A stretch of 34,706 bases of DNA, from contig CALGOE010000232.1 in the NCBI GenBank assembly GCA_937958145.1, forward strand, positions 1-34,706, given 5' to 3'. Origin of the DNA: an uncultured Desulfobacca sp. (GTDB lineage Bacteria; Desulfobacterota; Desulfobaccia; Desulfobaccales; Desulfobaccaceae). Both the position numbers and the translations under genes were made by a program. Position 1 is the first letter of the stretch; every line of letters begins with the position of its first letter. The notes under the pieces were generated by a model. That model was not told where the DNA came from. It worked only from the letters and a program-made list of their open reading frames with translations, and did not search any database. Shown piece by piece: positions 7,029-22,764 of this stretch.

Positions 7029-7748
7029 ATGGGAACGTCGACTGCCCGGAAAGCGCCACCAAAAGGGGCGTATTGGCGGAAGGCCAAGACGGCTGCAGCC
7101 CACTATGCCGCCCACGGGGAGGCGGCCCGCCTGTCGGTGGCGGAAGTGGTGGCTCGGTATGCCGTAGCGGTGGCGCCGGTGGGGTGGGATAGCCAACCGG
7201 ACCAGAACCTGTTGGAGGCAACGGCGCGTACCGCCGCGGCCCTGAACAGGTTTTATGAAACCTGGGAAGCCCAGGGCTGGCAGCGGGCCCTGGCCCAGCT
7301 CGGCATTGCGGCCCACGCCGGACACAACTGGGAGGCCCTGATGCCGGCTCTGCTCGACGCCCTGGCCGGGCCGGGGGCCCATCTGGCTGAAGCCGTGGCG
7401 AGAACCGCTCTGTTGGACCATTTCGCCGCCATGGGCCTGCTGGACGATGTGGCCGCGGCCGTCACCGGCAATGTCGACGCACCGCCGCTGCCCCCCGGCG
7501 ACGGCGCTTGGCATTTCCTGGCGTTGGCCCTGTTTCACCGTTATATCGCCGATATGGGGGAGACCTTGGAATTTCATGCCCCGTCTGTGGCGGCGGGGCG
7601 GGAGCGCCAGGAAGCCATCCGAGCCCACTTCCTGGCGCAGCTGAACCTGCTGCTCTCCCTGACCGGCGAAGAAGATGGTTGGCAGAGCCAACCGCTGACC
7701 TGGGTGGAAAATTTCCTCGGTCTGTTGGCAAACTACCATGGCCGTTAA
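7029..7748 (+). CDS. qatB: QatB-like helical protein, MGTS N-terminus
   Basis: A 239-residue, Ala/Leu-rich, largely helical protein with no signal peptide or catalytic motif. It begins MGTSTARKAPP; a MGTS start followed by a Pro/Gly-containing tail is what I recall of QatB, a component of the Qat anti-phage system. The decisive context is that it lies directly before, and overlaps by 11 bp, a QueC-like gene, which is the qatB-qatC order. The ribosome site AAGGAGAAGG is strong. The penultimate Gly would be exposed after Met removal. The assignment is family-level by position, size and N-terminus; sequence conservation in QatB is low, so an unrelated helical partner of the QueC-like enzyme remains possible. 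Confidence 0.5.
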   Translation: MGTSTARKAPPKGAYWRKAKTAAAHYAAHGEAARLSVAEVVARYAVAVAPVGWDSQPDQNLLEATARTAAALNRFYETWEAQGWQRALAQLGIAAHAGHNWEALMPALLDALAGPGAHLAEAVARTALLDHFAAMGLLDDVAAAVTGNVDAPPLPPGDGAWHFLALALFHRYIADMGETLEFHAPSVAAGRERQEAIRAHFLAQLNLLLSLTGEEDGWQSQPLTWVENFLGLLANYHGR

Positions 7749-9036
7749 GATCCTGTTGCAGCCGGGACCGCCGCCGGCCGACCTGGCGCGGCTTTCCTTT
7801 GATCATGTGGTGGGATTGCAACCCTCACCCCTGCCGGTAAAAATACACCACAATTTAGGTCTACTGGCGGGCGGCCGCACCGTCCTGCCGGAGCGGGTGT
7901 TGACGGCGCTGGTGGTGAGTCTGGGCGTCTGGGCCGCGGATAAGTTGGTCCCCCGGCGCCAGGCCGAGGATGCCTGGACCAGATATCTGGAGGTGTCGTG
8001 CCCGGCGCCGGCGTGGGGAGAGGCGCTCATGGGCCTGGCTGGTCTGCTGGATTTTCTCACCGGCGACATCTGGATGGTGCGAGCCCGGTCGGCCCGGCCC
8101 TGGCTGCCCATGGTCCTGCGGCCAGAAACGGCCTGGCAGCCGGACTGCGTCTGCCTTTTTTCCGGCGGTTTGGACTCCCTGACCGGGGCCATTGATCTTC
8201 TGGAAAGCGGCCGCCGGGTCCTCCTGGTCAGCCACTACGATTTCGGCCAACTGGCCAGCTGCCAGAATTATCTGACGGAGGCCCTGAAGCAGGCCTATGG
8301 TCCGGACCGGGTCCGACGCTGGGGGTTTCGAATCCAGTTTGAAGCGCCGGAATTGAGTCTGCGCAGCCGGTCGCTGTTATTCCTGACCCTGGGCGTGGCG
8401 GCCGCCTCGGTCTGGGAGGAGCCTGTGCCGGTAATTGTCCCGGAAAACGGCTGGATCAGCCTCAACCCACCCCTGACCGGCAACCGTCTGGGGAGCTACA
8501 GCACCCGCACCACACACCCTTATTTTCTCACCGGCCTGCGGCAGTGGCTGGCCAGCCTCGGTATGGGGCTCAGCATTGAGAATCCCTATCAGTATCTTAC
8601 CAAAGGGGAGGTGCTGCGGGGCTGCCGACGGCAATCCCTGCTGCGGCAGTTGGTGCCCTTTACCCTTTCCTGCGCCCATCCGGTGGCTTCCCGGTGGCTC
8701 AAAGGCCGGCAGGGGAATTGCGGCTACTGTTATCCCTGCCTGATCCGGCGGGCGGCCTTAGAGGCCGTGGGCTGGGATAACGGCGGGGAGTATCTGGTGG
8801 ATGTGCGCCAGGAGCCGAAAGTTTTGGCCAGCCGGACCAAGGGGGCCGATCTGCGGAGCCTCCTCTACCTCCTGGAGACCGGGCGGGATGGTGCGGCGCT
8901 CCACCGTCTCCTGTGGCAGACCGGGCCCCTGCCGGTTCCCGCAGCAGCGCAACGGGGTTTATTGGCGGTGCTGCGGCGGGGGTTGGAGGAGATCACTGCT
9001 TGGTGGGGAAGCGGGAAAATGTGCGCCGGGCGGTGA
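7738..9036 (+). CDS. qatC: QueC-like PP-loop protein, QatC-like
   Basis: A 432-residue protein with an ATP-pyrophosphatase PP-loop, FSGGLDS (SGGLDS at 142-147), and a QueC-type zinc site made of C312, C328, C331 and C334 (the last three in CGYCYPC). Between them lies VPENGWISLNPPLTGNRLGSYSTRTTHPYFL-type sequence, which marks the QueC-like group. Normal QueC (7-cyano-7-deazaguanine synthase) is only about 220-240 residues; here an extra ~130-residue N-terminal and ~90-residue C-terminal region are added, as in QatC. Its start codon lies inside the end of the QatB-like gene, giving translational coupling. Known family chemistry is ATP-dependent activation of a carboxy-deazaguanine. No qatA ATPase or adjacent qatD nuclease is present. 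It ends 8 bp from the convergent rnhA. Confidence 0.75.
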   Translation: MAVKILLQPGPPPADLARLSFDHVVGLQPSPLPVKIHHNLGLLAGGRTVLPERVLTALVVSLGVWAADKLVPRRQAEDAWTRYLEVSCPAPAWGEALMGLAGLLDFLTGDIWMVRARSARPWLPMVLRPETAWQPDCVCLFSGGLDSLTGAIDLLESGRRVLLVSHYDFGQLASCQNYLTEALKQAYGPDRVRRWGFRIQFEAPELSLRSRSLLFLTLGVAAASVWEEPVPVIVPENGWISLNPPLTGNRLGSYSTRTTHPYFLTGLRQWLASLGMGLSIENPYQYLTKGEVLRGCRRQSLLRQLVPFTLSCAHPVASRWLKGRQGNCGYCYPCLIRRAALEAVGWDNGGEYLVDVRQEPKVLASRTKGADLRSLLYLLETGRDGAALHRLLWQTGPLPVPAAAQRGLLAVLRRGLEEITAWWGSGKMCAGR

Positions 9037-9044
9037 GAATCGGC

Positions 9045-9587
9045 CTACTTGCGGCCGCTGGCGCGATAAAAAAGGCGATCTTTCTGGGCCTCGTAACCAC
9101 GATCCGGCGGCAGGTCCGAGGCCTGGGCGGCTTGGGTGGCCAGCGCATCGCACCGCTCGTTCTCACCATGGCCATTATGGCCCCGGAGCCAATGGAAATG
9201 CACCTGGTGGCGATTGCACAACTCCAGCAACTTTTCCCAGAGATCGGGATTTTTGGCCTTCTCGGTTTTGGACCGCATCCAGCCCTGGGCCCGCCACCGT
9301 CTGACCCAGCTTTTGGTCATGGCGTGGACGAGGTACTGGGAATCGCTGTAAAGGTCCACCCGGCAGGGGGTTTTGAGGGCGCTCAAGGCGGCGATGGCGG
9401 CCATGATCTCCATGCGGTTGTTGGTGGTGAGGCGAAAGCCGCCGGAAAGCTCCTTGCGATGGTCGCCGTAAAGCAAAACGGCACCATAGCCGCCCGGCCC
9501 CGGGTTGCCCAAACAGGCGCCGTCGGTAAATATGGTGACGTGTTTCAGGGTTCGACCTTGCTGAGCCGGTGGGGATGAATCTGCCAT
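9045..9587 (-). CDS. rnhA: Ribonuclease HI
   Basis: A 180-residue ribonuclease HI that cleaves the RNA strand of RNA-DNA hybrids. The catalytic acidic residues are all visible in order: Asp in [14 protein letters not shown], Glu in NNRMEIMAA, Asp in YSDSQYL and Asp in NERCDALA. The [12 protein letters not shown]-type basic handle region and HWLRGHNGH are also present. I place the start at the ATG at 9587; the track begins at a TTG two codons earlier. A short acidic N-terminal tail ([16 protein letters not shown]) precedes the core. A TATAAT lies upstream at 9727-9732 on this strand. It converges with the QueC-like gene. Confidence 0.95.
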
Positions 9588-9726
9588 GGTCAACGATGAG
9601 CCCGCAGGAGAGGAGCTGCGGCCGAATCCAGGCGGTTATCAATCATTTTGCGCCCCGGTTGCAATCAACCCAGTCTGCCAGCCACGAATGGAGCAATATT
9701 TTTCTGCCCTGTTCCCGGATAGCGAC

Positions 9727-9755
9727 ATTATACCCGGATTTCTCCCCGCCAGAAA
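9727..9755 (-). promoter_or_regulatory. Possible promoter for rnhA
   Basis: A perfect TATAAT reads on the minus strand at 9732-9727. The -35 region, 17-18 bases upstream, is TTCTGG or TTTCTG, a poor match to TTGACA. It sits just downstream of the terminator of the large minus-strand operon, which is where an rnhA promoter would be expected. The leader would be about 130 bases. Confidence 0.35.
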
Positions 9756-9778
9756 GAAGGGCCGGCAGCGCCGGCCCT
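9752..9778 (-). terminator. Hairpin terminator of the sulfur/Mo operon
   Basis: On the minus strand AGGGCCGGC-GCT-GCCGGCCCT forms a perfect 9-bp stem with a 3-base loop, followed by TCTTTCT. It begins 22 bases after the stop of the fusion gene at 9800. The T-rich tail is imperfect, but position and stem strength support an intrinsic terminator. Confidence 0.7.
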
Positions 9779-9799
9779 GAAAGTTGTGGCCGCAGCAGT

Positions 9800-12700
9800 T
9801 TACAAGTGGGCAAATTTTTCGGCCCGGACGCTGCGGGCGCATTTTGGACAGAGGCGGCGGAGCACATGTTTCCCGATCTGGCCGTCGCTGCGGTTGGTGA
9901 CATAGCTGAGGAACCGGGCCGGCACGAAAGGTTCGCCGCAGGCGGAGCATTTGGCTGTTTCCAAGTGATTCAAGACGGTGCCGCAGAGCCGGACTTCCCG
10001 GAAATTCTGGGCCTCCACGTAATCTATGGCCTGGGTCGGGCAGGCCAGGGCGCAGGCGCCGCAGGCGATGCACCGCTCCTGGACCCGCTGATAGTCGGTA
10101 AGGACCCGCTCCGTGGTGGTGATCTGGGAGAATTTCAGGGCGTAAACGTGCATCTGATCCCGGCAGACCCGCTCGCAGGTGCTGCAGCGGATGCAGACAT
10201 CGCAACGCAGACAGCGTTGGGCCTCGCGGCGGGCCTCCTCTTCGCTGTAACTCAGCTCCACCGGTTCAAACGTAGTGGTACGTTTGGCAATATCCAACAT
10301 GGGCACGGGATGCCGATGGTTATTGATCTTTTCGCTGGCCGGGATGTTCTGGAAAGGCACCTTGCGGCGCTTTTGGAAGCGCACCATGGGGGCTGGTCCG
10401 GGCCGCTGGAAAAGGAAATGGTCAATCTCCACGGCCGCCTGTTTGCCCATGGCAATGGCTTCCACCACGGTGGCCGGCCCCGTCACGGCATCGCCGCCGG
10501 CAAAGATATCCGGCACGGAGGTCCGGCAGGTGCCGGTATCGGTGACGATGGTGCACCAGGGAGTGGTGTGGACAGGCGGTACCGGAAAGGCGCAGAAATC
10601 GGGCTGTTGGCCGATGGCGGTGATGATGGCCCCGGCCTCAATGCGGTAATTGCTGTCGGGGATGGGGATCGGCCGGCGCCGGCCGCTGGCATCGGGGCGG
10701 CCCAGTTCAGCCTGGAGGCACTCCAGATACTCCACTTTGCCGTTGCCGCCGATGCGGATGGGCACGGTCAAAAAGTGGATCTGCACGCCTTCTTCCAGGG
10801 CCTGGGTCACTTCTTCGGGATGGGCCGGCATCTCAGCCCGGGTGCGGCGGTAGGAAACATGGACTTCCTGGCAGCCCAGGCGGATGCAGGTCCGGGCCGC
10901 ATCCATGGCGGCGTTGCCGCCGCCGATGATGACCACCTTGTCCGCAGGTTTTTTCTTTTCACCCAGATAGATGTTCCGGAGGAAATTGATAACATCATAA
11001 ACCTGGGGATAGTCATTCTCGCCTTCAATCTTGAGCTTGTAACCCAGGTGGGCGCCGATGCCCATGAAAAAGGCACCGTAGCCCTGGGCCCGCAGGTCGT
11101 CCAGGGTAACATCCTGGCCCACGGTGACGCCAGTGCGGATCTCCACCCCCAGGGAGGTGATCATCTCCACCTCCCGGGCCACCACCCGGCGGGCCAGGCG
11201 GTAATCGGGAATGGCCGCGACGAGCAGACCGCCCGGGATCTGGGCCTGTTCAAAGACCGTGACCTGGTGGCCTTTGAGGGCCAGAAAATAGGCGCAACTC
11301 AGACCGGCCGGACCGGAGCCGATCACCGCCACCTTTTTGCCGGTGGCCTGTTTGGCCGGAGGCGGTTGAAACTTCCCGTGTTGATCCACCCATTCGGCGG
11401 CGAAAGCCTTCAGGTAGCGGATATTGATGGGCTCATCCAGGTTGGCCCGGACGCAGGCCCGTTCGCAGGGATGGGGGCAGACCAGGCCGCAGACCCAGGG
11501 GAAGGGGTTGTCTTCCCGCATGACCTCCCAGGCCTCCTGGTGATTCCCCTGGGCAATGAGGGCCAGAAAGCTGGGAATGTCGATGCCGGCCGGACAGGCC
11601 AGATGACAGGGGGCCGACAACAGTTTGGGGCAGACATGGGCGTCACAGTAATGATTTTCAATGTGATGCTGGAATTCGTGGCCGAAATAGTGAAGGGCGG
11701 TGAGGATGGGATTCACGGCCAGACGGCTGAGCTGGCAGGAACCCTTCTGCTGGATCTCCTCGCAATCCACCTGAAGTTGGGCCAAAGTATCGTAGGTTGC
11801 AGTGCCATCCGTGATTCTGTCCAAAGACTCTTTGATCCGGAGTAGCCCCTGATGGCAATCGGGGCACTGACCGCCGGGCTGGTCCAGGACGAACGTCAGC
11901 AGATCCCTGGTCAGGGCCACGACGCAATCGTGATCATCCAGGGCCCGGATATGGCCGACGGCCAAGCCGCCGCCCAACTCCCGGAGGGTTTCGTGATTCA
12001 ACGGGATGCTGAGCATATTTTTGGGAAAGATGCCTCCCAACGGCCCGCCGATGAGGAAACCCTTGGGTTTGCGGCCATGCCGCCAGCCGCCGCCGATGCC
12101 GTTGAGGATATCCCCCAAAGTGGCGTTCAGGGGCACTTCGACAAAACCGGGCCGTTCCACGGCCCCGTTTAAGTGAAAAAGCATGGTCCCCGGCGCACAT
12201 TCAAACCCTTGACTGCGGAACCAGGCCACCGGCTGTTGGGCAATGAAGGGCAACGTGGCGATGGCCAGAAGGCTGTGCACCAAAAATTGCGGGGAGGGAT
12301 TCTTTTTCCAAAAGCCGGGGGGCAGGAGGCCGGAGAGGTAGCGGCGAAACAGATCCTCGTCTTCAATGAGGAAACGGCCCTTGCCACTGATGATATGGAT
12401 ATCGGGCAAAGGTTCCTTGGCCGGCCAGAGCCGGGAGTCCTGGAAGGCTTGCCAGGCTCTTCGCAGGCGTTCCAAGGCCAACGTCGCCTCTTCGGGGAGA
12501 TAGATGATAACGGTCCTGGCCTTCAGGGTTTGGGCTGCCAGCAACACCCCCTCCAGGACCTGATGGGGAATGCCTTCAACGATATACATGGCCGGGGAGG
12601 CGGACAACAAGGGCGGCGCGCCGTTCAGGGCTAGGATGGGCTGGCGTTTTTCCACCCGCCATTCGCACCACAGGGGCCCGAGGGCGACGGTGGTCATGCG

Positions 12701-13198
12701 GTTCACTTCCCGAAAACCTGCGGCCACGACCTTTTGCAGAAAGGAATCAAACCCCTGGCTAAAAAAGGTGCGCAACCCTTTGTAGCCGTCGTAATCCTGG
12801 TATTCTTCCCAGGACAACGGATCGATCTTGCCCACCAACTCGGAGATATAGGGTTTTTGCGGTTCGCTGAAATCCTGGTAGTCTTTGCCTACCAGCCACT
12901 GGCGCAAGGGACGCCGCTCATCGATATGGCTCTGGAGGATGCGGGGGACCATATCCGGGGTCAAGAGCTCATAGAGGTTGACGCCCAGCTCATCCCGGAT
13001 TTCCACCACCACATCTTTGCCTTCAATTCCCCGCCAGCCCACCAGACGGACCTCCACCGGTCCCAATTCATCTAAAGAACGTTCTTTGATGACCGCCAGA
13101 AAGGCTTCCCGAACGGCTTCGGCCGCGGCAATATCTGCGCCCGGGAAGGTGGAGATATTGATCTGCAGCAGCGGCTTGGCATTTGCTTGGGCTATCAT
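9800..13198 (-). CDS. NuoF-like/GltD-like/ferredoxin fusion oxidoreductase subunit
   Basis: A 1132-residue cytoplasmic fusion. Residues 1-95 resemble a NuoE/thioredoxin-type domain but contain no Cys. Residues 115-515 follow the NuoF layout (IDPLSWEEYQDYDGYKGL, IPHQVLEGVLLAA, an SLBB domain near 330-395, then the cluster region), yet the FMN motif GRGGAGFP is replaced by EVNRMTTVALGP, the NADEGEPG-type motif is absent, and only three cluster Cys remain (C445, C448, C488). Residues 515-935 are an intact GltD/NfnB-like module: N-terminal Fe-S Cys, FAD motif VIGSGPAGLSCAY near 625, and NAD(P) motif VVIIGGGNAAMDAAR near 755. Ferredoxin motifs CLRCDVCIRC and CIACGACALACP lie at 997-1053, and a zinc-ribbon-like pair (CSAC, CPKC) ends the protein. 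Start: AAGGAGAAGAAG precedes the ATG. Probably the NAD(P)H- or ferredoxin-linked electron-input subunit of the molybdoenzyme. Confidence 0.85.
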   Translation of the reverse strand: MIAQANAKPLLQINISTFPGADIAAAEAVREAFLAVIKERSLDELGPVEVRLVGWRGIEGKDVVVEIRDELGVNLYELLTPDMVPRILQSHIDERRPLRQWLVGKDYQDFSEPQKPYISELVGKIDPLSWEEYQDYDGYKGLRTFFSQGFDSFLQKVVAAGFREVNRMTTVALGPLWCEWRVEKRQPILALNGAPPLLSASPAMYIVEGIPHQVLEGVLLAAQTLKARTVIIYLPEEATLALERLRRAWQAFQDSRLWPAKEPLPDIHIISGKGRFLIEDEDLFRRYLSGLLPPGFWKKNPSPQFLVHSLLAIATLPFIAQQPVAWFRSQGFECAPGTMLFHLNGAVERPGFVEVPLNATLGDILNGIGGGWRHGRKPKGFLIGGPLGGIFPKNMLSIPLNHETLRELGGGLAVGHIRALDDHDCVVALTRDLLTFVLDQPGGQCPDCHQGLLRIKESLDRITDGTATYDTLAQLQVDCEEIQQKGSCQLSRLAVNPILTALHYFGHEFQHHIENHYCDAHVCPKLLSAPCHLACPAGIDIPSFLALIAQGNHQEAWEVMREDNPFPWVCGLVCPHPCERACVRANLDEPINIRYLKAFAAEWVDQHGKFQPPPAKQATGKKVAVIGSGPAGLSCAYFLALKGHQVTVFEQAQIPGGLLVAAIPDYRLARRVVAREVEMITSLGVEIRTGVTVGQDVTLDDLRAQGYGAFFMGIGAHLGYKLKIEGENDYPQVYDVINFLRNIYLGEKKKPADKVVIIGGGNAAMDAARTCIRLGCQEVHVSYRRTRAEMPAHPEEVTQALEEGVQIHFLTVPIRIGGNGKVEYLECLQAELGRPDASGRRRPIPIPDSNYRIEAGAIITAIGQQPDFCAFPVPPVHTTPWCTIVTDTGTCRTSVPDIFAGGDAVTGPATVVEAIAMGKQAAVEIDHFLFQRPGPAPMVRFQKRRKVPFQNIPASEKINNHRHPVPMLDIAKRTTTFEPVELSYSEEEARREAQRCLRCDVCIRCSTCERVCRDQMHVYALKFSQITTTERVLTDYQRVQERCIACGACALACPTQAIDYVEAQNFREVRLCGTVLNHLETAKCSACGEPFVPARFLSYVTNRSDGQIGKHVLRRLCPKCARSVRAEKFAHL

Positions 13199-13360: not shown

Positions 13361-13885
13361 TTACCGGGCACTGACCACGACATCCAGCTCGAACGCCACT
13401 TTTTCAGCGATTTTCTGCCGTCGCTCCGGTTCCAGATCAGCGATGCGGCCAAATTTCAGGCAATGGGTGACGCATTTGCTGACGCAGGCCGGCTGCAGAC
13501 CCTGATCCAGTCGATCCATGCAATAATCACATTTTACCACTCGGTTGGTTTGCGGGTTCCATTGCGGCGCCCCCCAGGGACAGGCACTGATGCAGCTTTT
13601 GCAGCCGACGCAGAGGGATTGATCCACATAGACGATCTGATCCTTGGGGCGCACCCGCATGGCCCCGGTGGGGCAGACGGGAACGCACCAGGGTTCGCTG
13701 CAATGGAAACAGGGCATAAAGACAAAGGCCAACTTGGGCCGACCGTTCACTATTTTGGGGCCCACTGGTATGATCTGCCCCAGGCGGGGGCCCACCGGCA
13801 GGTTTTTATTCGATTTGCAGTGGACTTCACAGCTGTAACAACCGATACATTGACCGAGATCCTGCAGAAGATAGTATTGACTCAT
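13361..13885 (-). CDS. Four-cluster [4Fe-4S] electron-transfer subunit
   Basis: A 174-residue ferredoxin-type subunit of the DmsB/PhsB/PsrB/HybA family. Four cluster motifs are visible in order: CIGCYSCEVHC, CFHCSEPWCVPVCP, CVGCKSCISACP and CDYCMDR with ACVSKC. Sixteen ligand Cys plus at least one extra can be counted. There is no signal peptide, in keeping with a cytoplasmic complex. GGAAGAG precedes the ATG, 15 bp after the stop of the molybdoenzyme gene. It should relay electrons between the molybdopterin subunit upstream and the fusion subunit downstream. The 162-bp gap to the fusion gene holds no ORF I would support. Confidence 0.92.
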   Translation of the reverse strand: MSQYYLLQDLGQCIGCYSCEVHCKSNKNLPVGPRLGQIIPVGPKIVNGRPKLAFVFMPCFHCSEPWCVPVCPTGAMRVRPKDQIVYVDQSLCVGCKSCISACPWGAPQWNPQTNRVVKCDYCMDRLDQGLQPACVSKCVTHCLKFGRIADLEPERRQKIAEKVAFELDVVVSAR

Positions 13886-13900: not shown

Positions 13901-16000
13901 TTAAGCTAAAGGCCGGACCTGCACGAGGGTATGGTCATAGGCCGGGCTGCCGCCCACCATGTCAGAGATATTTTCCTGCAAGGCCGAATCATCAGCACCC
14001 TTGCGATAAACCCGGGTCTGAGCCGGGACCGTCTTGCCGAAGCCGTGCAGCATAAACACCGCTTCGGGATGGATGAAATCCGTCACCTTGGCCCGCAGGC
14101 GGCCAGAGCCGACGGCCGATTTGACCTCCACCAGGTCGCCGGGTTTGATGCCAAGTTTCTGGGCCTGGGCGGTATTGATCCATAATTCGTTTTCCGGGCA
14201 GACCTCGTTGAGATAGAGGTTGTTTTGGGTGGAAACGTGGGTATGGGTGGCGGTGCGGCCGACCAGGAGCCGGAACTGGCCCGGCGGCGGCGCCGGCAAT
14301 GGCTCATACGGAATGAAGGAGGGGAAACCGGCGTTCTCCATCAGGGCGCTGGTAATTTCAAATTTGCCGGAGGGGGTGTTGAATTTAATGCCCTTTTCCC
14401 GGTCCCACCAGATGGGCTCCTCGGCCAGGGTAACAAACCCCTTTTTGTCGAAATCGCTGAGTTTGACGCCTACCGGGGCCAACTGGAAATTCCAGATATC
14501 CTCGATGGTTTCATAGGGGAAATAATGGCCGATATCCAGGCGCCGGGCCAATTCTTTCAGGATCCACCAGCCCGGTTTGGTATCGTAGCGGGGAGAGACT
14601 GCGGGTTGGCGCCGATAGAGCTGCGGTTTCAGACCCGAAACGACCTGGATGGAGTCGCCCCGCTCCAGGTACGTGGACTCGGGGAGGATGACATCGGACA
14701 TCCAGGCGATTTCGCTGAAATTAATGTCAATGGCCACGATCAGGTCCAATTTTTCCAGGGCCCGCCGGGTATTATTGCTGTCGGCAATGGACTGCAGCGG
14801 TTCAAAGCGATTGATGAATAAGGCTTTGATGGGATAGGGGTCTTCGTGCAGGATGGCATGGGCCAACATTTGGGGGTTGCCGTGGGAGGCATCGGCAATG
14901 GGGAAGCGGCTGCCGCCGCTGCCGTCGAACCGGGGCACGGTAATTTTGGGGAAGTCCTGGTCCACGTATTTGCCCACGTCTTGGCGGCCCACAGCTTTAA
15001 GCCCCTTTTTGAAGAACAGGCCGCCGGGGGCCTCCAGACTGCCCATCAGGGCATTCAGGATGAGGATGGAGCGACGCAGATAGATTTCGTTGGGGTGATG
15101 GGCGCCGCGGTAGCCGAAATGGAAGATGACCGCAGGCTTGACCGCGCTTGCTTCCCGGGCTAACTCGATAATTTCTTTGGCCGGGATGCCGGTTTCCTTT
15201 TCGGCCCACTCGGGCGTGTACGATTTGACAAATTCTTTCAGGGCCGCCAATTCCTGGCGATGATCCTTGATCCAGCGGACCGCAAAGGCCATATCCAAGA
15301 GTTCTTCATTGAGAATGACGTTGATGAGGGCGTAGTTCAGGGCCAGATCGGTGCCCGGGCGGATCTGCCAGTAGCGGTCGGCTTTGGAGGCCGTCACGGT
15401 ATAGCGGGGATCAATGTAAGTGATCTTGGCGCCCTTGCTCCGGGCCTTCATCAGGTTATTGATGGCTTTGATTTCCAGGGATTCGAAGATATTGCGGCCG
15501 TAGAGGATAATATGTTTGGTGTTGCCGTAATCGATGCCGATCTGGGGATCAACGTAACCGGTGAGACTGCGGCAGGCGGTATTAACGGAACCTTTACAGA
15601 GGGCGTCATGGGTAAAGTGGTTGGGCGAACCCAGGGCCTTCATGAAGGTTTTGCTGATATGGGTATTGAGATTGGTACGCTCGCCGAAGACCACGCTTTG
15701 GGGCCCGTATTGGGCGACAACGGCCTTGAGCTTGTCGGCCACGTAATCCAGGGCTTCGTCCCAGGAAGCCTGCCGCCACTGACCGGCACCCCGATCGCCG
15801 GTGCGGATCATGGGATGCTGAGGCCGTTCCGTGTCGTGCAACAAGGCCAGCCCCGCCGAACCTTTGGCACACAGGGCGCCGTCAATACCTGGCACGTGGG
15901 GGTTGCCCTCGATCCAGGTGACGTCATCATTGTCCACCAGAACGCGAATGGGACAGCGCACCGTGCACATGAAACAGATGCTGTAGACTTCTTGCGTCAT
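13901..16000 (-). CDS. Molybdopterin oxidoreductase, Phs/Psr-like, no Tat signal
   Basis: A 699-residue catalytic subunit of the DMSO-reductase superfamily, binding a molybdopterin-guanine dinucleotide cofactor and one [4Fe-4S] cluster. Cluster Cys are C9, C12, C16 and C44 (ICFMCTVRC, GALCAKG). The likely metal ligand is C135 in HDALCKGS, which would place it with Cys-ligated thiosulfate/polysulfide reductases (PhsA/PsrA) and related sulfur enzymes. Other superfamily phrases are YIDPRYTVTASKADRYWQIRPGTD-type sequence, LPESTYLERGDS and the C-terminal molydop-binding domain near 590-699. The cluster lies at the extreme N-terminus and an in-frame stop lies just upstream, so there is no Tat leader: the enzyme should be cytoplasmic. 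Substrate cannot be read from sequence; a sulfur compound is inferred from neighbours. Confidence 0.88.
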   Translation of the reverse strand: MTQEVYSICFMCTVRCPIRVLVDNDDVTWIEGNPHVPGIDGALCAKGSAGLALLHDTERPQHPMIRTGDRGAGQWRQASWDEALDYVADKLKAVVAQYGPQSVVFGERTNLNTHISKTFMKALGSPNHFTHDALCKGSVNTACRSLTGYVDPQIGIDYGNTKHIILYGRNIFESLEIKAINNLMKARSKGAKITYIDPRYTVTASKADRYWQIRPGTDLALNYALINVILNEELLDMAFAVRWIKDHRQELAALKEFVKSYTPEWAEKETGIPAKEIIELAREASAVKPAVIFHFGYRGAHHPNEIYLRRSILILNALMGSLEAPGGLFFKKGLKAVGRQDVGKYVDQDFPKITVPRFDGSGGSRFPIADASHGNPQMLAHAILHEDPYPIKALFINRFEPLQSIADSNNTRRALEKLDLIVAIDINFSEIAWMSDVILPESTYLERGDSIQVVSGLKPQLYRRQPAVSPRYDTKPGWWILKELARRLDIGHYFPYETIEDIWNFQLAPVGVKLSDFDKKGFVTLAEEPIWWDREKGIKFNTPSGKFEITSALMENAGFPSFIPYEPLPAPPPGQFRLLVGRTATHTHVSTQNNLYLNEVCPENELWINTAQAQKLGIKPGDLVEVKSAVGSGRLRAKVTDFIHPEAVFMLHGFGKTVPAQTRVYRKGADDSALQENISDMVGGSPAYDHTLVQVRPLA

Positions 16001-16069: not shown

Positions 16070-16627
16070 CTAAGGGGCAGTGGGTGAGTTGGACACCGGG
16101 CCCGGGGCAACCGGCACCTGGGGCGGCCGGAGGACACGTCGGACAAATCGGCCCACCGATTTGACGACGATCAGGGTCCCGAAATACAGAAGCAGAAAGA
16201 CGCCGATAAAACCTAAGGACCACGGGGTGCCGGGGATGGGCACCGCCAGTTCCAGGAAGCGGTATTGCAGCCACGCCAGGGCAAAGAAGATGGGCCAGAG
16301 ATAAGCCGCCGACAGGGCCACCTGCTGAAAAAAGGTGTGGCCGAAGGCGTCATTGGCCAGTTTATTGGCAGCCTGATAGGCTTCTTTATCCCCGGCTTTG
16401 AGCGCAGCGGTGGCCAGTTCCTGGTATTTGGCCGCCTCGGCGCCATATTGGGCCAGCCGCGGCTGCAGGAAGCGGAGCACGAAGACGGCGGTCAGCTTGC
16501 CCAAAATAAGGCAAAGACCGGCCAGGAAGACGGTGCCGATGATAAAATCCAGCTCGGCCAGGCCGGTCAGGCGATACCACCAGATCAACCACCGATCCAC
16601 CACCTGCACGTATGGGTGCATCTCCAT
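16070..16627 (-). CDS. Oxa1/EMC3-like (DUF106-type) membrane protein
   Basis: A 185-residue membrane protein starting MEMHPYVQVVDRW, with GGGAG five bases before the ATG. It has a hydrophobic segment near residues 22-45, then a charged helical hairpin (LAQYGAEAAKYQELATAALKAGDKEAYQAANKLAND), then two hydrophobic segments (ALSAAYLWPIFFALAWL and GFIGVFLLLYFGTLIVV) and a Pro-rich tail. That order (TM, cytosolic coiled coil, TM, TM) matches the minimal Oxa1 superfamily, especially archaeal DUF106 and EMC3. This is a pattern match, not a search. It lies between tauE and the molybdoenzyme gene in the same operon, so it may help insert or anchor the exporter or dock the soluble complex. The track start at 16768 is rejected. 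Confidence 0.7.
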   Translation of the reverse strand: MEMHPYVQVVDRWLIWWYRLTGLAELDFIIGTVFLAGLCLILGKLTAVFVLRFLQPRLAQYGAEAAKYQELATAALKAGDKEAYQAANKLANDAFGHTFFQQVALSAAYLWPIFFALAWLQYRFLELAVPIPGTPWSLGFIGVFLLLYFGTLIVVKSVGRFVRRVLRPPQVPVAPGPVSNSPTAP

Positions 16628-16688: not shown

Positions 16689-17864
16689 CTACATTCCTGG
16701 GAAGATGGAATAACCCAGGAATCCTTTGGTAGTATAGCCCACGCCGACGTAAATGGCCAGCAGAACAAATAGGCGTTTCAACCAGACGTCAGGAATATAT
16801 TTTGAGGTGATGGGACCGACAAAGGAGCCGATGGCAATGCCGATCAATTCGGCGCCGACAAAGACGAAGTCAATGGGAGTGCCTTTGACAAACATGAAGG
16901 TAAAAATGGACGTCACCATGCTGACAAAGACGGCCAAGGCGGACGTCCCGGCGACAATATACATGGGGAGGTTGGTCACCGAGGTCAAGAAGGGGACATA
17001 CAGGAAGCCGCCGCCGACGCCGATGAAGGCGGAGATGGCGGCGATGAAAAAACCGCCCACAAAGGGCCAGATGGGATTAAAAGAAAACTCCACGCCGAAA
17101 AAGGTGAAATTGATGCGGGTCAGACCCCATTTCTGGACGCGCACGCCCGTGAGTTCGGGACCGGCGGTCTCCTCCCCTTTGGCCTTTTTCTTCACCGATT
17201 CTTCAAAGGCCTTGGCCGCTTCTTTGGCCTTCTTTTTGCGTTCCTGGCCCTTGGGGGTGGTCTCATAGAACAGGAAGCAGCCGATGACCAGGACGATGAG
17301 GCCGAAGTAGCCGATATAGGCGCTCAGGGAAATCTTGCCGGCCGTCAACACCGGAATCAGATACGCGCCGGCGATGCCGCCCAGGGCCAGGGCCAGACCC
17401 AGGGGCATGACCAAACGGCCCAGCCGGTAGTAGGTGATGGAAGAGATAAAGGCCGACAAGCCGACAAGATATTGGTTGGAGGTGCGGATGGAGTCGGTTA
17501 AAAGTTTATTCAGGGCCGGGTTGGTGTTTTTAAAGGTTTTGCCATAATCGGCCAACCCAAACACAGTAATATGGCCGACGCCGGCCATGATGCCGCCAAA
17601 GGCGCCGACCGTGGAGAAGATCCAGCCGACCCAGATACCCCAGAGAATGCCCCAGAACCACCAGGGGCTGGGGGCGCCGGGGATGCCCATGAAGCCTTTC
17701 GGGGCATTGGGATCGATCTGGCCGGGGCCGGTCCCTACCGGGGTTTTGTTAATCAGATCCTGGAGTTTGCTGACCTGGGCGGCGGCCGTTTCCGGCAGGA
17801 TAACGGCGGCCAGCGCCAGGGCCACCAGCATGAGTCCGAAAATGCTTAAAAATCGCTTATTCAT
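16689..17864 (-). CDS. TauE/SafE-family anion exporter
   Basis: A 391-residue integral membrane protein of the TauE/SafE family, whose members move sulfite, sulfonates and related anions across the inner membrane. The N-terminus is a cleavable-signal-like segment (LMLVALALAAVILPETAAAQ) followed by about 40 extracytoplasmic residues. Two TauE half-repeats follow, seen in WFWGILWGIWVGWIFSTVGAFGGIMAGVGH and PFVGGFFIAAISAFIGVGGGFLYVPFL. A Lys/Glu-rich cytoplasmic loop of about 45 residues (KGQERKKKAKEAAKAFEESVKKK) separates the halves. AGGAGGAAGG precedes the ATG. It is the first gene of the minus-strand operon and suggests that the complex handles a sulfur oxyanion. Direction and substrate are not determinable from sequence. 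Confidence 0.9.
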   Translation of the reverse strand: MNKRFLSIFGLMLVALALAAVILPETAAAQVSKLQDLINKTPVGTGPGQIDPNAPKGFMGIPGAPSPWWFWGILWGIWVGWIFSTVGAFGGIMAGVGHITVFGLADYGKTFKNTNPALNKLLTDSIRTSNQYLVGLSAFISSITYYRLGRLVMPLGLALALGGIAGAYLIPVLTAGKISLSAYIGYFGLIVLVIGCFLFYETTPKGQERKKKAKEAAKAFEESVKKKAKGEETAGPELTGVRVQKWGLTRINFTFFGVEFSFNPIWPFVGGFFIAAISAFIGVGGGFLYVPFLTSVTNLPMYIVAGTSALAVFVSMVTSIFTFMFVKGTPIDFVFVGAELIGIAIGSFVGPITSKYIPDVWLKRLFVLLAIYVGVGYTTKGFLGYSIFPGM

Positions 17865-18091: not shown

Positions 18092-19513
18092 ATGAATAAT
18101 TTTACAGAAAAATTCTGGGAAAACATTATTAATACCATGGTCGACGGCCTGGTGGTGATTTCGCCCCGTGGCTTGATTGTGGCGGTGAACCAAGCCCTGG
18201 TGGAGATGACCGGATACCGTCGGGAGGAGCTCATCGGGCAGCCCTGCGCCCTGATCAAGACAGACAAATGTTTTTCGGGGGTGTCGCCGGCCACGGGGAA
18301 GATTTGCGAATTGTTTCGCGCCGGGGCCATCCGGCGGCAACGGGGTAGTCTGGTGCGCAAAGACGGCGGCCTGGTGCATGTGGTCAAAAACGCCGTCCTG
18401 ATGCCCGGTGAGGATGGGCAGCCGGTGGCGGTGGAGACCTTTACGGATGTCAGTGAGCTGGTGGCCCAGGAGCGGGTGGTGTCCCGGCTGCGGCGGGAGC
18501 TGCATCGGCAGGACGGTTTTCAGGGTCTGATCGGGCAGTCGCCGGTGATGCGCCATCTCTTTGCCCTCATTGAGAGTGCGGCTCAGTCCGATGCCCCCGT
18601 CATGATCCTGGGAGAGAGCGGCACCGGCAAGGAGCTGGTGGCCTCGGCCATCCATCGGCTCAGTCCCCGCCGCCAGGGGCCGTTCATCAAGGTGAACAGT
18701 GCGGCCCTGCATGAATCCTTGCTGGAAAGCGAGCTTTTCGGCCACGTCAAGGGGGCCTTTACCGGCGCCGACCGGGCCCGGATGGGACGGTTCGAGGCGG
18801 CCCACGGCGGCGATATCTTTCTGGACGAAATCGGCGACCTGCCGTTGGCCACCCAGGCCAAATTGCTCCGGGTCTTGCAGGAAAAGGTGGTGGAGCGGGT
18901 GGGGGATCACACCCCCATCCCGGTGGATGTGCGGCTGATTTCAGCCACGAATAAAGATCTGAACCAGCTTCTGGCTGCGGGCCGGTTTCGGGAAGATCTT
19001 TTTTATCGGGTCAATGTCATTCCCATCCAGGTACCGCCCCTGCGGGAGCGGGTGGGGGATATACCGCTGTTGGTGGAGGCTTTTCTGGAGCGGATTCGCC
19101 TGAAGACCAGGAAGCCCATTGTCAGCATCAGCAAAGAGGCATTGGAAATACTCATGGCGTATCATTGGCCGGGCAACGTCCGGGAGCTGATCAACGTCAT
19201 GGAATTCGCCTTTGTGCTCTGCGGCGGCGACAAGATTTTGCCGTCCCATCTGCCCAATCTCAAAAAACTGCGTCCGGCCGCCCGGCCTAAAGTCGTGGGC
19301 GGAGAGGAGGACGGGGAGAGGGATGAGCGGGAGGTGCTGCGCCAGACCCTGGCGGCGGCTGGCGGCAATAAGGCCGAGGCGGCCCGGATGCTGGGCATAA
19401 GCCGCGTGACTTTGTGGAAAAGATTGAAAAAATATAATCTACAAGGGTTGCTGGCCGCAGAGGCCGGAGCGCAGACACCGGCAGCAGCCGAGACCCTGAT
19501 CAGAATCAAGTGA
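18092..19513 (+). CDS. PAS-AAA+-Fis sigma-54 activator
   Basis: A 473-residue sigma-54-dependent transcription activator. Residues 5-125 form a PAS sensor (MVDGLVVISPRGLIVAVNQ, ending VETFTDVSELV) containing three Cys (C52, C60, C72), which might bind a cluster or sense redox. The AAA+ domain has Walker A GESGTGK at 174-180, the sigma-54 contact loop GAFTGA at 221-226, Walker B GGDIFLDEIGDLP, and an arginine-finger region in REDLFYRVNVIP. The C-terminus carries a Fis-type helix-turn-helix (GGNKAEAARMLGISRVTLWKRLKKY). There is no receiver domain, so control is by PAS ligand or redox state. It is divergent from the tauE operon, its most probable target. The ATG at 18092 has only a weak GCAGG site. 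Confidence 0.93.
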   Translation: MNNFTEKFWENIINTMVDGLVVISPRGLIVAVNQALVEMTGYRREELIGQPCALIKTDKCFSGVSPATGKICELFRAGAIRRQRGSLVRKDGGLVHVVKNAVLMPGEDGQPVAVETFTDVSELVAQERVVSRLRRELHRQDGFQGLIGQSPVMRHLFALIESAAQSDAPVMILGESGTGKELVASAIHRLSPRRQGPFIKVNSAALHESLLESELFGHVKGAFTGADRARMGRFEAAHGGDIFLDEIGDLPLATQAKLLRVLQEKVVERVGDHTPIPVDVRLISATNKDLNQLLAAGRFREDLFYRVNVIPIQVPPLRERVGDIPLLVEAFLERIRLKTRKPIVSISKEALEILMAYHWPGNVRELINVMEFAFVLCGGDKILPSHLPNLKKLRPAARPKVVGGEEDGERDEREVLRQTLAAAGGNKAEAARMLGISRVTLWKRLKKYNLQGLLAAEAGAQTPAAAETLIRIK

Positions 19514-19566
19514 AAGGTCAGGGGGCGGCCGGCGGCCCCCAGAGTCACAGCGAACAGAGAACGATC

Positions 19567-20550
19567 ATGGATGCCTATTCGATGCAAGGAACAGGAACAA
19601 AGGGGACTGCTGCGACCAAGGTCCTGGGTTGGCCCGGCCTGCTGGTGCTGCTTTTTTGTCTCGGGCTAAGCCTCATGGCCTGCGGGGAGGAGGAGCCCCG
19701 CAAGAGGGTAGACCTGAGCAAAGTACAGGACCAGCCTCTGGCCAAACAAGGGGCGGCGATCACCTATGCCTATCTGCCGCAGTACGCCCATACGGTGTCC
19801 TACCAGCGCCATCATCTGGTCATGGATTATCTCACCAAAACCACCGGCTTGGAGATCCGGCAGGTGTTTCCCGATACCTTCGATGAACATATGAACATGG
19901 TGGGGCGGGGTCTCATCGATATCACCTTCAGCAATCCTTTTATTTATGTCAAGATTGCCGACCGCTATGGGGCGCGGGCCTTCGCCCGGGTGGTGGAGCC
20001 CGGCGGGCAGGAGAATTTTCGGGGGCAGATCATCGTCCGGGCTGACAACCAGGAGATCCAAACCCTGGCCGATCTTAAAGGCAAGCGGCTGATTGCGGTG
20101 GATCCCACCTCCGCGGGTGGCTATCTCTATCCCTGGGGATTGATTTTGGAAAGCGGTTTGCGCCAGGAGGATTTTGCCGAGATCGCCTTTGCCCCGGGGC
20201 CGGGAGGCAAACAGGAAAAAGTGGTCATGGCGGTCTATTCCGGAAAATATGATGCCGGCCTGATCCGGGAAGGGACCCTGGAAGTGGTGAAAGACAAGAT
20301 CGATTTGAATCAGATCAGGGTGTTGGCCTACTCCCACTGGTATCCGGGCTGGGTCTATGCGGCGCGCAAAGGGTTTGACGAGGCGAAGCTGGCCAAGATC
20401 AAAGAGGCCCTGTTGGCGTTGCATTATGAGAATCCGGAGCATCGCCAGATTTTAGACAACGCCGGTTTCATCGGCATCATTCCGGCCCGGGATGAGGATT
20501 TTGTCAGCGTCCGGCGGTTGGCGGAATTGGTCGAAGCCGCGGGTAAGTAG
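19567..20550 (+). CDS. PhnD-like periplasmic binding lipoprotein
   Basis: A 327-residue substrate-binding protein of the PhnD (phosphate/phosphonate-type) group. The N-terminus is hydrophobic (LLVLLFCLGLSLMAC) and ends in a lipobox-like LMAC with C39, so it should be a lipoprotein. PhnD-type features are VSYQRHHLVMDYLTKTTGLEI, FSNPFIYV, the LADLKGKRLIAVDPTSAGGYLYP motif and KYDAGLIREGTLEV. No ABC permease or ATPase gene lies nearby; instead a histidine kinase follows by 64 bp. PhnD-like domains are known as the sensor part of kinases such as TtrS for tetrathionate. It is therefore probably a sensory binding protein for a sulfur or phosphorus oxyanion. The track start at 19510 is a GTG overlapping the previous stop; I prefer the ATG at 19567, though its ribosome site is weak. 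Confidence 0.82.
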   Translation: MDAYSMQGTGTKGTAATKVLGWPGLLVLLFCLGLSLMACGEEEPRKRVDLSKVQDQPLAKQGAAITYAYLPQYAHTVSYQRHHLVMDYLTKTTGLEIRQVFPDTFDEHMNMVGRGLIDITFSNPFIYVKIADRYGARAFARVVEPGGQENFRGQIIVRADNQEIQTLADLKGKRLIAVDPTSAGGYLYPWGLILESGLRQEDFAEIAFAPGPGGKQEKVVMAVYSGKYDAGLIREGTLEVVKDKIDLNQIRVLAYSHWYPGWVYAARKGFDEAKLAKIKEALLALHYENPEHRQILDNAGFIGIIPARDEDFVSVRRLAELVEAAGK

Positions 20551-20614: not shown

Positions 20615-21310
20615 ATGAAAACCGGCATAGGACGGGCGTTGGCAAGATTATCCTTCCGCAGCAAGATCTTTTTGGGGATCACGGCGGTCATTGTCTTTTT
20701 CGGTCTGACCCTGGCGATTGCCATCAGTCAGGTGGCAACCCGGGCCATGTTGACCGAGATCAAGAAACGGGGTTTGAATTTAGGGGTTAGTTTGGCGGCC
20801 CGGACGGCCGACCCCATGTTGGCCCAGGATTTCCTGCGCCTGAAAAACATGGTGGATGAGGTCAAAGATTCCAGCGACGACATTGTCTATGCCTTTATCC
20901 TGGACAAGTATGGCCAGGTTTTGTCCCATACGTTTTTGGGGGGCTTTCCGGTGGAGTTGCTGGGGGCCAATGAGGTGGTGCCGGAAGCGGCGCGCAATAT
21001 TGTCATCCTGGAGACCGAAGACGAGCGGGTCTATGATTTTGCCGTCCCGGTGACGGTGGGGACGCACCGTATCGGCACCGTGCGGGTCGGTCTGTCGCAG
21101 ATCAAGGCCCAGGCGGCGGTAAGCCGCCTGTTGTATATTGTTTTTGGGGTATCGGCGGGCGCGGCTTTGCTGGCAGTGTTGTTGGGAACCCTCTTTGCCG
21201 ACACGGTGACCCGTCGCCTGGAGGTGCTCAGACGGTCGGCCGAGCAGATGGTGCGCGGCAACCTCAGTCTGGCCACGGGAGGGCCGGGCGGCGCCAGTGT
21301 TGGGAGATAA
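20615..21310 (+). CDS. Histidine kinase N-terminal part (frameshifted)
   Basis: This 231-residue ORF is the sensor half of a membrane histidine kinase. It has a membrane segment near residues 18-42, an extracytoplasmic region that resembles a short Cache-like sensor (ARTADPMLAQDFLRLKNMVDEV, IVYAFILDKYGQVLSH), a second membrane segment (LLYIVFGVSAGAALLAVLLGTLF) and the start of a HAMP domain (RRLEVLRRSAEQMVRGNLSL). Reading then runs off into GGPGGASVGR and a stop at 21310, while the expected continuation appears in the -1-shifted frame from 21298. The break lies between about 21262 and 21298 in a G-rich tract. It may be a sequencing indel, a real mutation or recoding. Confidence 0.8.
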   Translation: MKTGIGRALARLSFRSKIFLGITAVIVFFGLTLAIAISQVATRAMLTEIKKRGLNLGVSLAARTADPMLAQDFLRLKNMVDEVKDSSDDIVYAFILDKYGQVLSHTFLGGFPVELLGANEVVPEAARNIVILETEDERVYDFAVPVTVGTHRIGTVRVGLSQIKAQAAVSRLLYIVFGVSAGAALLAVLLGTLFADTVTRRLEVLRRSAEQMVRGNLSLATGGPGGASVGR

Positions 21311-22764
21311 AAAACTGCCGGCAGGAGAATTGTCCGGCCTATGGGGACCGCCAGCGCCGTTGTTGGCTGCTGCCGGACACCCTCTGTCCGGAATGCCGGG
21401 CCGGGAATTACAGCCGCAAGATCGAGGCCTGCCAGGAGTGTCAGGTTTACCAGGAGTTGGCCGGGGACGAGATTCAGGCTTTGGCCGATACCTTTGACTA
21501 CATGGCCGTCAGCTTGCAGGAACATATTGAGGGGCTGCAAACGGCTCAGAAGATATTAACCCGGCAGCAGCAGCTCCTGCGCACCATGCTGGACATGACC
21601 CCCGATCTGGTGAGCCTGCAGGACGCCCATCTGGTTTATCAGGCGGTGAACCAGTCATTTTTGGAGTATTTCGGGTTCAGGCCGGAACAGGTGATCGGCC
21701 GCACCGATGTGGATATTTTCCCGCCGGGGGTGGCCGCGGCGATTCGGCAAGAGGACCTGGCCATTTTGCGGACCGGTCAGCCGCTGCGCAAAGAGGTGGT
21801 CATTCCCCGGCAGAACCAGAAGCATTGGTTCCACATGGTAAAGGTGCCGATCATTGATGAGGAGCGGACGGTGGGTCTGTTGTTGACGGCCCGGGACATC
21901 ACCGAATTGAAGCTGTATCAGGAAAAGTTAATCCAAGCCGTCAAGATGGAAGAGCTGGGGAAACTGGCCGGCGGCGTGGCCCATGAAATTAACACTCCGC
22001 TGGGGATTATCCTGGGATATGCCCAGATGCTGCTGGAGGATCTGCCCCAGGACGAAGAGAGTTATGAATTTATCCAGATTATTGAAAAACAGGTGAAGAT
22101 CTGCCGGCGCATCGTGGCCGATCTGCTGAGCTTTTCCCGGATCAGCGAAGGCAGCAAGGAGCTTTTGGATGTCAATGCCAGCCTCAGAGAAGTGGTCCAG
22201 TTGATCGACCATATCTTTCAACAGCACTGGGTGCACATTGACCTGGCCCTGACCCCGGAGCTGCCGGCGGTGGAGGGAGACCGGGAGAAACTCCGCCAGG
22301 TTTGGCTGAATCTGCTGAATAATGCCTTTGAGGCCATCGGTCAGGGCGGGACGATCTGGGTGCGAACGGACCTTTGCCCGTCCGGACAGCATATCCTGGT
22401 GAGCGTGGCGGACACCGGCAGCGGCATCAGTCCGGAGCATTTACCCCGGGTTTTTGATCCCTTTTTCAGCACCAAGGCCCCGGGCGTGGGCACCGGTCTG
22501 GGCCTGGCCGTGTCCTACGGCATTATTCAGGAGCATCAAGGCAACATTTTTGTGGTCAGTCCCCGGCCGGCGGGTTATCCTGTCGCCCCGGGGAGCGAAC
22601 CCAAGGGCGCCGGTCCCGGCGCGCTCTTTGTGGTGAAACTGCCGCGGGCCGGCCAGGTTTTAATGGCAGACGATTGCGAAAACAGTTTACTGCACCCGGA
22701 AGCGGCAAAACTACTATCAGAGGCTCAAGGAGGTCGGCATGGGGCGCATCATGGTCTTGGATGA
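21298..22764 (+). CDS. Histidine kinase, Cys-rich insert plus catalytic part
   Basis: In this frame coding sequence runs on from 21298, before the ORF-track start (a TTG at 21457). The first 50 residues contain eight Cys: CWEIKNC, CPAYG, CW, CPEC and CQEC, a motif I recall inserted after HAMP helices in sensor proteins of Desulfobacterota. It is followed by GDEIQALADTFDYMAVSLQ, the second half of HAMP, then a PAS domain (DLVSLQDAHLVYQAVNQSFLEYFGF). The kinase core has the H-box GGVAHEINTPLGIILGYAQ, N-box NLLNNAFEAI, G1 DTGSGI, F-box FDPFFST and G2 GTGLGLAVSYG. The C-terminal tail after VVKLPRAG is unusual and overlaps the response regulator by 26 bp. It likely phosphorylates that regulator. 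Confidence 0.82.
   Translation, partial: CWEIKNCRQENCPAYGDRQRRCWLLPDTLCPECRAGNYSRKIEACQECQVYQELAGDEIQALADTFDYMAVSLQEHIEGLQTAQKILTRQQQLLRTMLDMTPDLVSLQDAHLVYQAVNQSFLEYFGFRPEQVIGRTDVDIFPPGVAAAIRQEDLAILRTGQPLRKEVVIPRQNQKHWFHMVKVPIIDEERTVGLLLTARDITELKLYQEKLIQAVKMEELGKLAGGVAHEINTPLGIILGYAQMLLEDLPQDEESYEFIQIIEKQVKICRRIVADLLSFSRISEGSKELLDVNASLREVVQLIDHIFQQHWVHIDLALTPELPAVEGDREKLRQVWLNLLNNAFEAIGQGGTIWVRTDLCPSGQHILVSVADTGSGISPEHLPRVFDPFFSTKAPGVGTGLGLAVSYGIIQEHQGNIFVVSPRPAGYPVAPGSEPKGAGPGALFVVKLPRAGQVLMADDCENSLLHPEAAKLLSEAQGGRHGAHHGLG

What the first reader, a model, noticed from the sequence alone, without database searches (positions are those of the whole stretch)
9800..13198. NuoF-GltD fusion whose NuoE/NuoF half has lost its cofactor motifs
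Residues 1-515 keep the NuoE/NuoF layout (IDPLSWEEYQDYDGY, SLBB, cluster region), but there is no Cys before residue 178, the GRGGAGFP FMN motif is replaced by EVNRMTTVALGP, the NADEG-type motif is gone and one cluster Cys is missing. The GltD-like half and ferredoxin motifs are intact. A dead flavin module retained as scaffold, with NAD(P)H entry moved to the GltD part, would be an unusual redox design.
Basis: partly seen in the sequence, partly recalled or inferred. Interest (0 to 1): 0.75.

Follow-up and report, generated by a model that had tools for sequence, protein, structure and literature searches.

The report
Emptied flavin module inside NADPH molybdoenzyme
A family of sulfate-reducing bacteria keeps, apparently under selection, a complex I-like flavin protein domain from which the flavin, NADH and iron-sulfur motifs have been erased, fused to a working-looking NADPH module that probably feeds a sulfur-handling molybdenum enzyme.

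Summary
Window 9800-13198 (-) encodes a 1132-aa fusion: a NuoE/NuoF-like half (1-515), a GltD/NfnB-like FAD/NADPH half (517-930), a two-cluster ferredoxin region and a Cys-rich tail. The NuoF half keeps its fold (AlphaFold model; VIA-align Z 41.8 to the HydB-type chain 7t2r_B, 403 aa, 2.4 A) but has lost the FMN/NADH motifs and the [2Fe-2S] Cys pair. It is not a one-copy accident: 20 of 20 orthologous N-halves (17 genomes of the window's order, 3 of another family) lack them, while 21 of 21 comparison NuoFs keep the FMN loop. dN/dS in the emptied half is mostly as low as in the GltD half, so it is retained. The gene ends a conserved operon: TauE-type permease, small membrane protein, cytoplasmic PsrA/PhsA-like molybdoenzyme, DmsB-like protein, fusion. 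Relatives of the same molybdoenzyme carry an intact unfused bifurcating-type NuoE/NuoF, or a GltD with only the last ~110 residues of NuoF, or no NuoF. Best reading: a relic of a Bfu/NuoF-type NAD module, kept as structural element of an NADPH-linked molybdoenzyme. Substrate and scaffold role are inferred. New variant of a known kind.

The parts
9800..13198 (-). NuoF(emptied)-GltD-ferredoxin fusion protein, 1132 aa
   Evidence: orthologs
12869..13198 (-). NuoE-like thioredoxin-fold N-domain (residues 1-110), no Cys
   Evidence: alignment; model
12299..12868 (-). former FMN/NADH-binding domain (residues 111-300), motifs erased
12674..12721 (-). place of the glycine-rich FMN loop (residues 160-175); low model confidence (pLDDT 57-69 for blocks 151-170)
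11927..12298 (-). SLBB-containing region (residues 301-424), partly conserved
11654..11926 (-). NADH_4Fe-4S helical bundle (residues 425-515); 3 of 4 N3 cluster Cys left (C445, C448, C488)
10409..11650 (-). GltD/NfnB/StnC-like [4Fe-4S]/FAD/NADPH module (residues 517-930)
9803..10246 (-). two-[4Fe-4S] ferredoxin region plus CxxC...CxxC tail (residues 985-1132)
13361..13885 (-). DmsB-like ferredoxin, 174 aa, 17 Cys (room for four [4Fe-4S])
13901..16000 (-). PsrA/PhsA-like molybdopterin oxidoreductase, 699 aa, no signal peptide visible, probable Mo ligand Cys135
16070..16627 (-). small membrane protein between tauE and mop, about 185 aa, similar small protein at the same place in L021 and L101
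   Evidence: position of ATG read; no family assigned
16689..17864 (-). TauE/SafE-type permease
   Evidence: conserved neighbour
18092..19513 (+). divergent PAS/sigma-54 activator, probable regulator
19510..20550 (+). PhnD-like periplasmic binding protein, weak match to tetrathionate kinase TtrS sensor

Best explanation
The fusion is the electron-input subunit of a cytoplasmic NADPH-linked PsrA/PhsA-like molybdoenzyme (fusion + DmsB-like + Mop). NADPH reduces FAD in the GltD half; electrons go through its [4Fe-4S] clusters, the C-terminal dicluster and the DmsB-like protein to the Mop cluster and the molybdenum centre, which probably reduces a sulfur compound. The NuoF half is a relic of a HydB/StnB (Bfu)-type NAD module: an ancestor had an intact NuoF joined to GltD; in this lineage FMN, NADH, the [2Fe-2S] sites and one or more N3 ligands were lost but the fold was kept, most likely as a structural/docking element. 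Shown here: domain order, motif loss in all orthologs, retained predicted fold, purifying selection, conserved operon, graded relatives. Inferred: electron path, NADPH preference, substrate and direction, scaffold role, absence of FMN.
For: Motif table: 20 of 20 N-halves of the group lack the FMN loop, NADE motif, CGE motif, thioredoxin Cys and first N3 Cys; in 21 of 21 comparison rows the FMN loop is present (strict pattern tests failed on single motifs in a few intact controls). dN/dS for four emptied subregions 0.032-0.357 in the 10 closer pairs (one not computable) against 0.038-0.190 for the GltD half. Fold kept: mean pLDDT 84.7; N-half 9bp5_B Z 43.5, 7t2r_B Z 41.8, complex I NuoF Z about 37; GltD half StnC 8oh5_C Z 48.2, NfnB 5jca_L Z 40.7. 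Operon conserved. StnC K170, strictly conserved ligand of the cluster next to a non-bifurcating FAD (PMC10482914, section 9 read), aligns with K597. Graded relatives: intact unfused NuoE/NuoF beside the same Mop in G130 and G331; GltD with a ~110-aa NuoF remnant (hhalign probability 96.9% with 12 of 13 rows; at most 3.6% in 20 column shuffles made from the first 4 rows); GltD without NuoF in G294 and G328. GltD tree: this group and the remnant group form one clade (99), intact fusions outside. The genome has dsrA and aprA.
Against: No biochemistry. The pocket could still hold a flavin or another ligand with new residues; coordinates of the model were not available to me. Three N3 Cys persist in the window's order (except G020), so a three-Cys cluster is possible. 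Most related operons examined outside the order lack the NuoF half, so a scaffold is not generally required. The NuoF tree puts the emptied group on a very long branch, so its exact parent among intact NuoFs is unresolved. Mop substrate rests on similarity and neighbours. Four of 36 loci with Mop >=60% identical were not examined.
Confidence: 0.7

Rival explanations
1. The former flavin pocket has been rebuilt into a new ligand or regulatory site, so the N-half is an active sensor or allosteric domain rather than a scaffold.
For: Group-specific invariant residues cluster in the former FMN region (W177, C178, R181, E183, P187, N192, A194, P196, D280, E281 in 15 of 15 aligned members of the order); dN/dS stays low there.
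Against: Outside the order (G185, G406, G407) C178 is not kept and the segment after W177 reads REA, which argues against one shared ligand. The loop region has low model confidence.
Confidence: 0.15
2. The N-half still binds FMN and NAD(H) through substituted residues and remains a redox module.
For: Fold kept; N192 kept in 19 of 20 and E281, within the old CGEE segment, in the 15 aligned.
Against: G164, R165, G167, D194, E195, G196, C278, G279, T282 and A283 kept in 0 of 20; no [2Fe-2S] Cys; G185 and G406 keep 1 of 4 N3 Cys, so no outlet cluster is expected there.
Confidence: 0.06
3. The N-half is a decaying remnant with no function, carried along because it is fused in frame.
For: Related operons have truncated or removed it: G294, a close relative, has none; G084 shows a separate decay.
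Against: dN/dS well below 1 in all subregions where it could be computed; 15 full-length copies in the order without stops; predicted fold intact.
Confidence: 0.09

Closest known systems
Nfn-Bfu / StnABC transhydrogenase (8oh5, 9bov, 9n5u; PMC10482914, PMC9304861)
   Same: Same two modules: HydB-type NuoF half (StnB) and GltD-like FAD/NADPH half (StnC), both at high structural similarity; K170 ligand position kept as K597.
   Different: Here the two are one chain, FMN, [2Fe-2S] and N3 sites are lost, the Fd-like domain after NuoF is replaced by GltD, no NuoE/StnA partner lies in the operon, and a PsrA-like Mop is attached.
PsrA/PhsA polysulfide/thiosulfate reductase (2vpw)
   Same: Mop is most similar to it in PDB (E 3.4e-115), with N-terminal Cys motif, a Cys at the aligned place and a DmsB-like partner.
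   Different: No signal peptide visible and no membrane anchor subunit recognised in the operon; electrons appear to come from NADPH, not quinol.
NuoF of complex I / HydB
   Same: Fold, SLBB region and helical bundle.
   Different: FMN, NADH and cluster motifs erased.
NuoF-GltD fusions with intact NuoF (L018-L020, L035-L037, L176-L179)
   Same: Same fusion order.
   Different: Intact motifs; L018-L020 and L035-L037 are only 35-39% identical; in those inspected, NuoG/FdhA-like partners (by reading the ORFs).

Membership tests
Bfu electron-bifurcating family (defined in PMC9304861 by the BfuBC core) | FMN site in the BfuB/NuoF chain | tested here: not met
   Motifs absent in 20 of 20; sequence test only
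Bfu electron-bifurcating family (defined in PMC9304861 by the BfuBC core) | Iron-sulfur clusters of BfuB (B1 of four Cys, N-terminal [2Fe-2S], Fd-like B3/B4 domain) | tested here: not met
   First N3 Cys and thioredoxin Cys absent; GltD follows the NuoF core
Bfu electron-bifurcating family (defined in PMC9304861 by the BfuBC core) | BfuC/NuoE-type partner | tested here: not met
   None in the window operon; present in G130 and G331. A partner encoded elsewhere was not sought
Bfu electron-bifurcating family (defined in PMC9304861 by the BfuBC core) | HydB/StnB fold | tested here: met
   Z 41.8 over 403 aa to 7t2r_B
GltD/NfnB/StnC family | Fer4_20, FAD GxGxxG, second Rossmann GGGNxxxD and YRR | tested here: met
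GltD/NfnB/StnC family | NADPH rather than NADH preference | not testable with these tools
   YRR motif is suggestive (recalled)
PsrA/PhsA-type molybdoenzymes | N-terminal Fe4S4 Cys, Molybdopterin and dinucleotide-binding domains, Cys at the Mo-ligand position | tested here: met
   the ligand role of the aligned PsrA Cys is recalled
PsrA/PhsA-type molybdoenzymes | Exported by a signal peptide, quinol-linked by a membrane subunit | tested here: inconclusive
   Mop begins at the Cys motif (residue 9) with no signal sequence; the small membrane protein of the operon is unassigned

The most novel reading that the evidence does not exclude
The emptied NuoF half is not a passive scaffold: its FMN/NADH pocket has been rebuilt into a new conserved site, so that an ex-bifurcating module now regulates or gates electron flow from NADPH to a molybdoenzyme without carrying any cofactor itself.
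Probability: 0.15. Interest if true: 0.8.

Novelty: new variant of a known kind. Interest (0 to 1): 0.6.

Why it matters
The paper that defined the Bfu family states that the BfuBC redox cofactors are absolutely conserved in all its members (PMC9304861, abstract and section 5 part 1 read). Here a lineage keeps the BfuB/NuoF fold under selection with the motifs gone, beside relatives of the same molybdoenzyme that have the intact module, a fragment of it, or none. That gives a natural series for asking what the NuoF fold does besides carrying flavin, how a two-nicotinamide (possibly bifurcating) enzyme is reduced to a plain NADPH-linked one, and whether cofactor-free redox domains act as structural parts.

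Tried and rejected
Pseudogene or assembly error: rejected, 15 full-length open copies in the order, no internal stops. Antisense ORF 9569-11845 (+, 758 aa): taken as spurious; the minus-strand gene has the family matches. One-copy mutation: rejected. NuoF tree to find the parent of the emptied half: the group lies on a branch of 2.1 changes per column, no usable placement. Literature: ten searches listed no paper that, by title and abstract start, describes a NuoF/HydB half without its FMN site in such a fusion; the library holds open-licence PubMed Central papers only, and most listed papers were not opened. Papers: PMC10482914 (passages, section 9), PMC9304861 (outline with abstract, passages, section 5 part 1 of 3), PMC12998232 and PMC8780430 (passages); the others as search listings only. 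Rows left out of the 20-row count: G023, G027 (only C-terminal ends on contig edges) and L073 (189 residues). G084, a differently decayed fusion without the NuoE-like domain, was kept apart. In one search only 4 of 13 remnant rows passed my pattern; one search repeated it with 12 of 13. The trees are quick ones without bootstrap. The second structure job and the remaining fold searches were not used.

Full report
What is there. The ORF at 9800-13198 (-) encodes 1132 aa. Pfam finds, in order, a weak FMN-domain match, a weak SLBB match, a clear NADH_4Fe-4S bundle (429-512), Fer4_20 (517-608), Pyr_redox_2 (621-918) and a two-cluster ferredoxin region (1002-1058). The C-terminal ~150 residues resemble part of separate Fer2/Fer4 subunits in relatives. 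By sequence the N-half is closest in the PDB to BfuB-type chains 9n5u_B, 9bov_B and 8oh5_B, and the second half to 9bov_A, 8oh5_C and 9n5u_A.

The loss. Against 21 comparison NuoFs (unfused, fused, and two paralogs of the window's own genome), the glycine-rich FMN loop, the NADE segment, the CGEETA segment, the thioredoxin-domain Cys pair and the first N3 Cys are gone in all 20 orthologous N-halves. Of 53 FMN/NADH-region positions conserved in at least 20 of 21 comparison rows, 7 are kept in at least 18 of 20 of the group; in the SLBB region 16 of 37; in the cluster bundle 9 of 18. The later N3 Cys are kept in most: C445 in 19 of 20, C448 and C488 in 18 of 20 each; G185 and G406 keep only C445 of these three. 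The two own-genome paralogs are intact.

Who has it. In 40 relatives (29 in the window's order including itself), 19 of the 29 have a match of 60% identity or more; 15 are full length, two have the N-half and two only the C-terminal end. It is absent at this level from 10 of 29, among them G003, a same-genus genome in one contig. In 395 phylum genomes 12 order members and G185 have the fusion; G130's hit is an intact unfused NuoF. Among 39 genomes of G185's order, three have it (G185, G406, G407). The search for related loci gave 64 loci in genome collections; the near ones are MAGs of the same group, the nearest named Desulfobacca sp. (L021, 91%).

Retention. Nei-Gojobori dN/dS in the four subregions of the emptied half is 0.032-0.357 in the ten closer pairs (one value not computable), 0.038-0.190 for the GltD half; the highest value is the cluster bundle of L028-L033. 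Two more distant pairs give 0.13-0.34 and 0.17-0.20, with dS close to saturation in places. The emptied half is less conserved than an intact NuoF paralog: N-half identities 90, 61, 62 and 63% to G002, G007, G009 and G017 against 97, 74, 69 and 70% for the paralog. So it is constrained but somewhat looser.

Fold. AlphaFold2 on 38 sequences gives mean pLDDT 84.7, pTM 0.69; blocks 151-170, the old FMN loop, are at 57-69. Foldseek and VIA-align put the N-half on HydB/StnB chains (9bp5_B Z 43.5, rmsd 2.9 A, 507 aa; 7t2r_B Z 41.8, 2.4 A, 403 aa) and the GltD half on StnC and NfnB (Z 48.2 and 40.7). The model was built from an alignment that included intact NuoFs, so it tests compatibility with the fold rather than proving it.

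Operon. tauE, a small membrane protein, mop, dmsB and the fusion lie on one strand and recur in the order (in two loci tauE lies downstream of the fusion instead, and short contigs miss parts). Mop is PhsA/PsrA-like (PRK15488 574.7 bits, cut-off 694; 2vpw E 3.4e-115), begins at its Cys motif without a signal peptide and has Cys135 where PsrA has its aligned Cys. A sigma-54 activator and a PhnD-like binding protein, weakly similar to TtrS, are divergent. The genome carries dsrA and aprA above cut-off. Together this points to a sulfur compound; substrate and direction are inferred.

Relatives of the operon. 85 of 395 genomes have a Mop at E 1e-190 or better; 36 are at least 60% identical. Of the 24 of these outside the order I examined 20: 1 emptied fusion (G185), 1 differently decayed fusion without the NuoE-like domain (G084), 12 with GltD carrying only a ~110-aa N-terminal remnant, G331 with that GltD plus intact unfused NuoE/NuoF, G130 with intact NuoE/NuoF (contig edge), G294 with GltD and no remnant, and 3 with no GltD seen nearby (G036, G402, G119; the last ends at Mop). 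The remnant is homologous to the NuoF cluster bundle (hhalign 96.9%; shuffled controls at most 3.6%). The Mop tree holds the emptied-fusion rows as one group (support 82); the GltD tree unites emptied, remnant-free and remnant forms (99), with intact fusions outside. This fits an ancestral NuoF-GltD fusion followed by truncation, deletion, or erasure with retention.

Mechanism. NADPH to FAD in the GltD half, then its [4Fe-4S] clusters, the C-terminal dicluster, the DmsB-like clusters, Mop. StnC's K170, which takes part in the cluster next to a FAD described as non-bifurcating, aligns with K597; C114 aligns with I541, and the paper reports Val or Ile there in two homologs. The arginine of NfnB that matters for bifurcation is conserved in StnC too and aligns with R667, so that residue does not decide. 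On balance neither half looks like a bifurcating site. By recalled potentials, NADPH suits polysulfide or tetrathionate better than thiosulfate. The N-half is most simply a structural part; this is inference.

Verdict. Observation confirmed; interpretation partly supported; a new variant within the NuoF/Bfu and GltD kinds, notable because the defining paper calls the BfuBC cofactors absolutely conserved.

Noticed in passing
window 7029-9036 (+): QatC (336 bits) preceded by a weak QatB match: a probable Qat-type anti-phage system next to the operon.
   Followed up: partly
L100 1142-7315 (G130), L144 4144-10866 (G331): The same PsrA-like Mop and DmsB beside intact NuoE, HydB-type NuoF and Fer2/Fer4 subunits: a candidate electron-bifurcating PsrA-like complex, not named among the third substrates in the abstract of PMC9304861.
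   Followed up: partly
L141 1-1673 (G084): A second, differently decayed NuoF-GltD fusion lacking the NuoE-like domain, cut by the contig edge.
   Followed up: partly
G003 C1:1214854-1241969: Four NuoF-like genes (55-56% to the query paralog) within 27 kb of one genome.
   Followed up: no
window 16070-16627 (-): Small membrane protein between tauE and mop, recurring at similar places in relatives, without an assigned family.
   Followed up: no
window 20615-22764 (+): Single-cache sensor and PAS histidine kinase downstream of the PhnD-like gene, possibly sensing for the operon.
   Followed up: no
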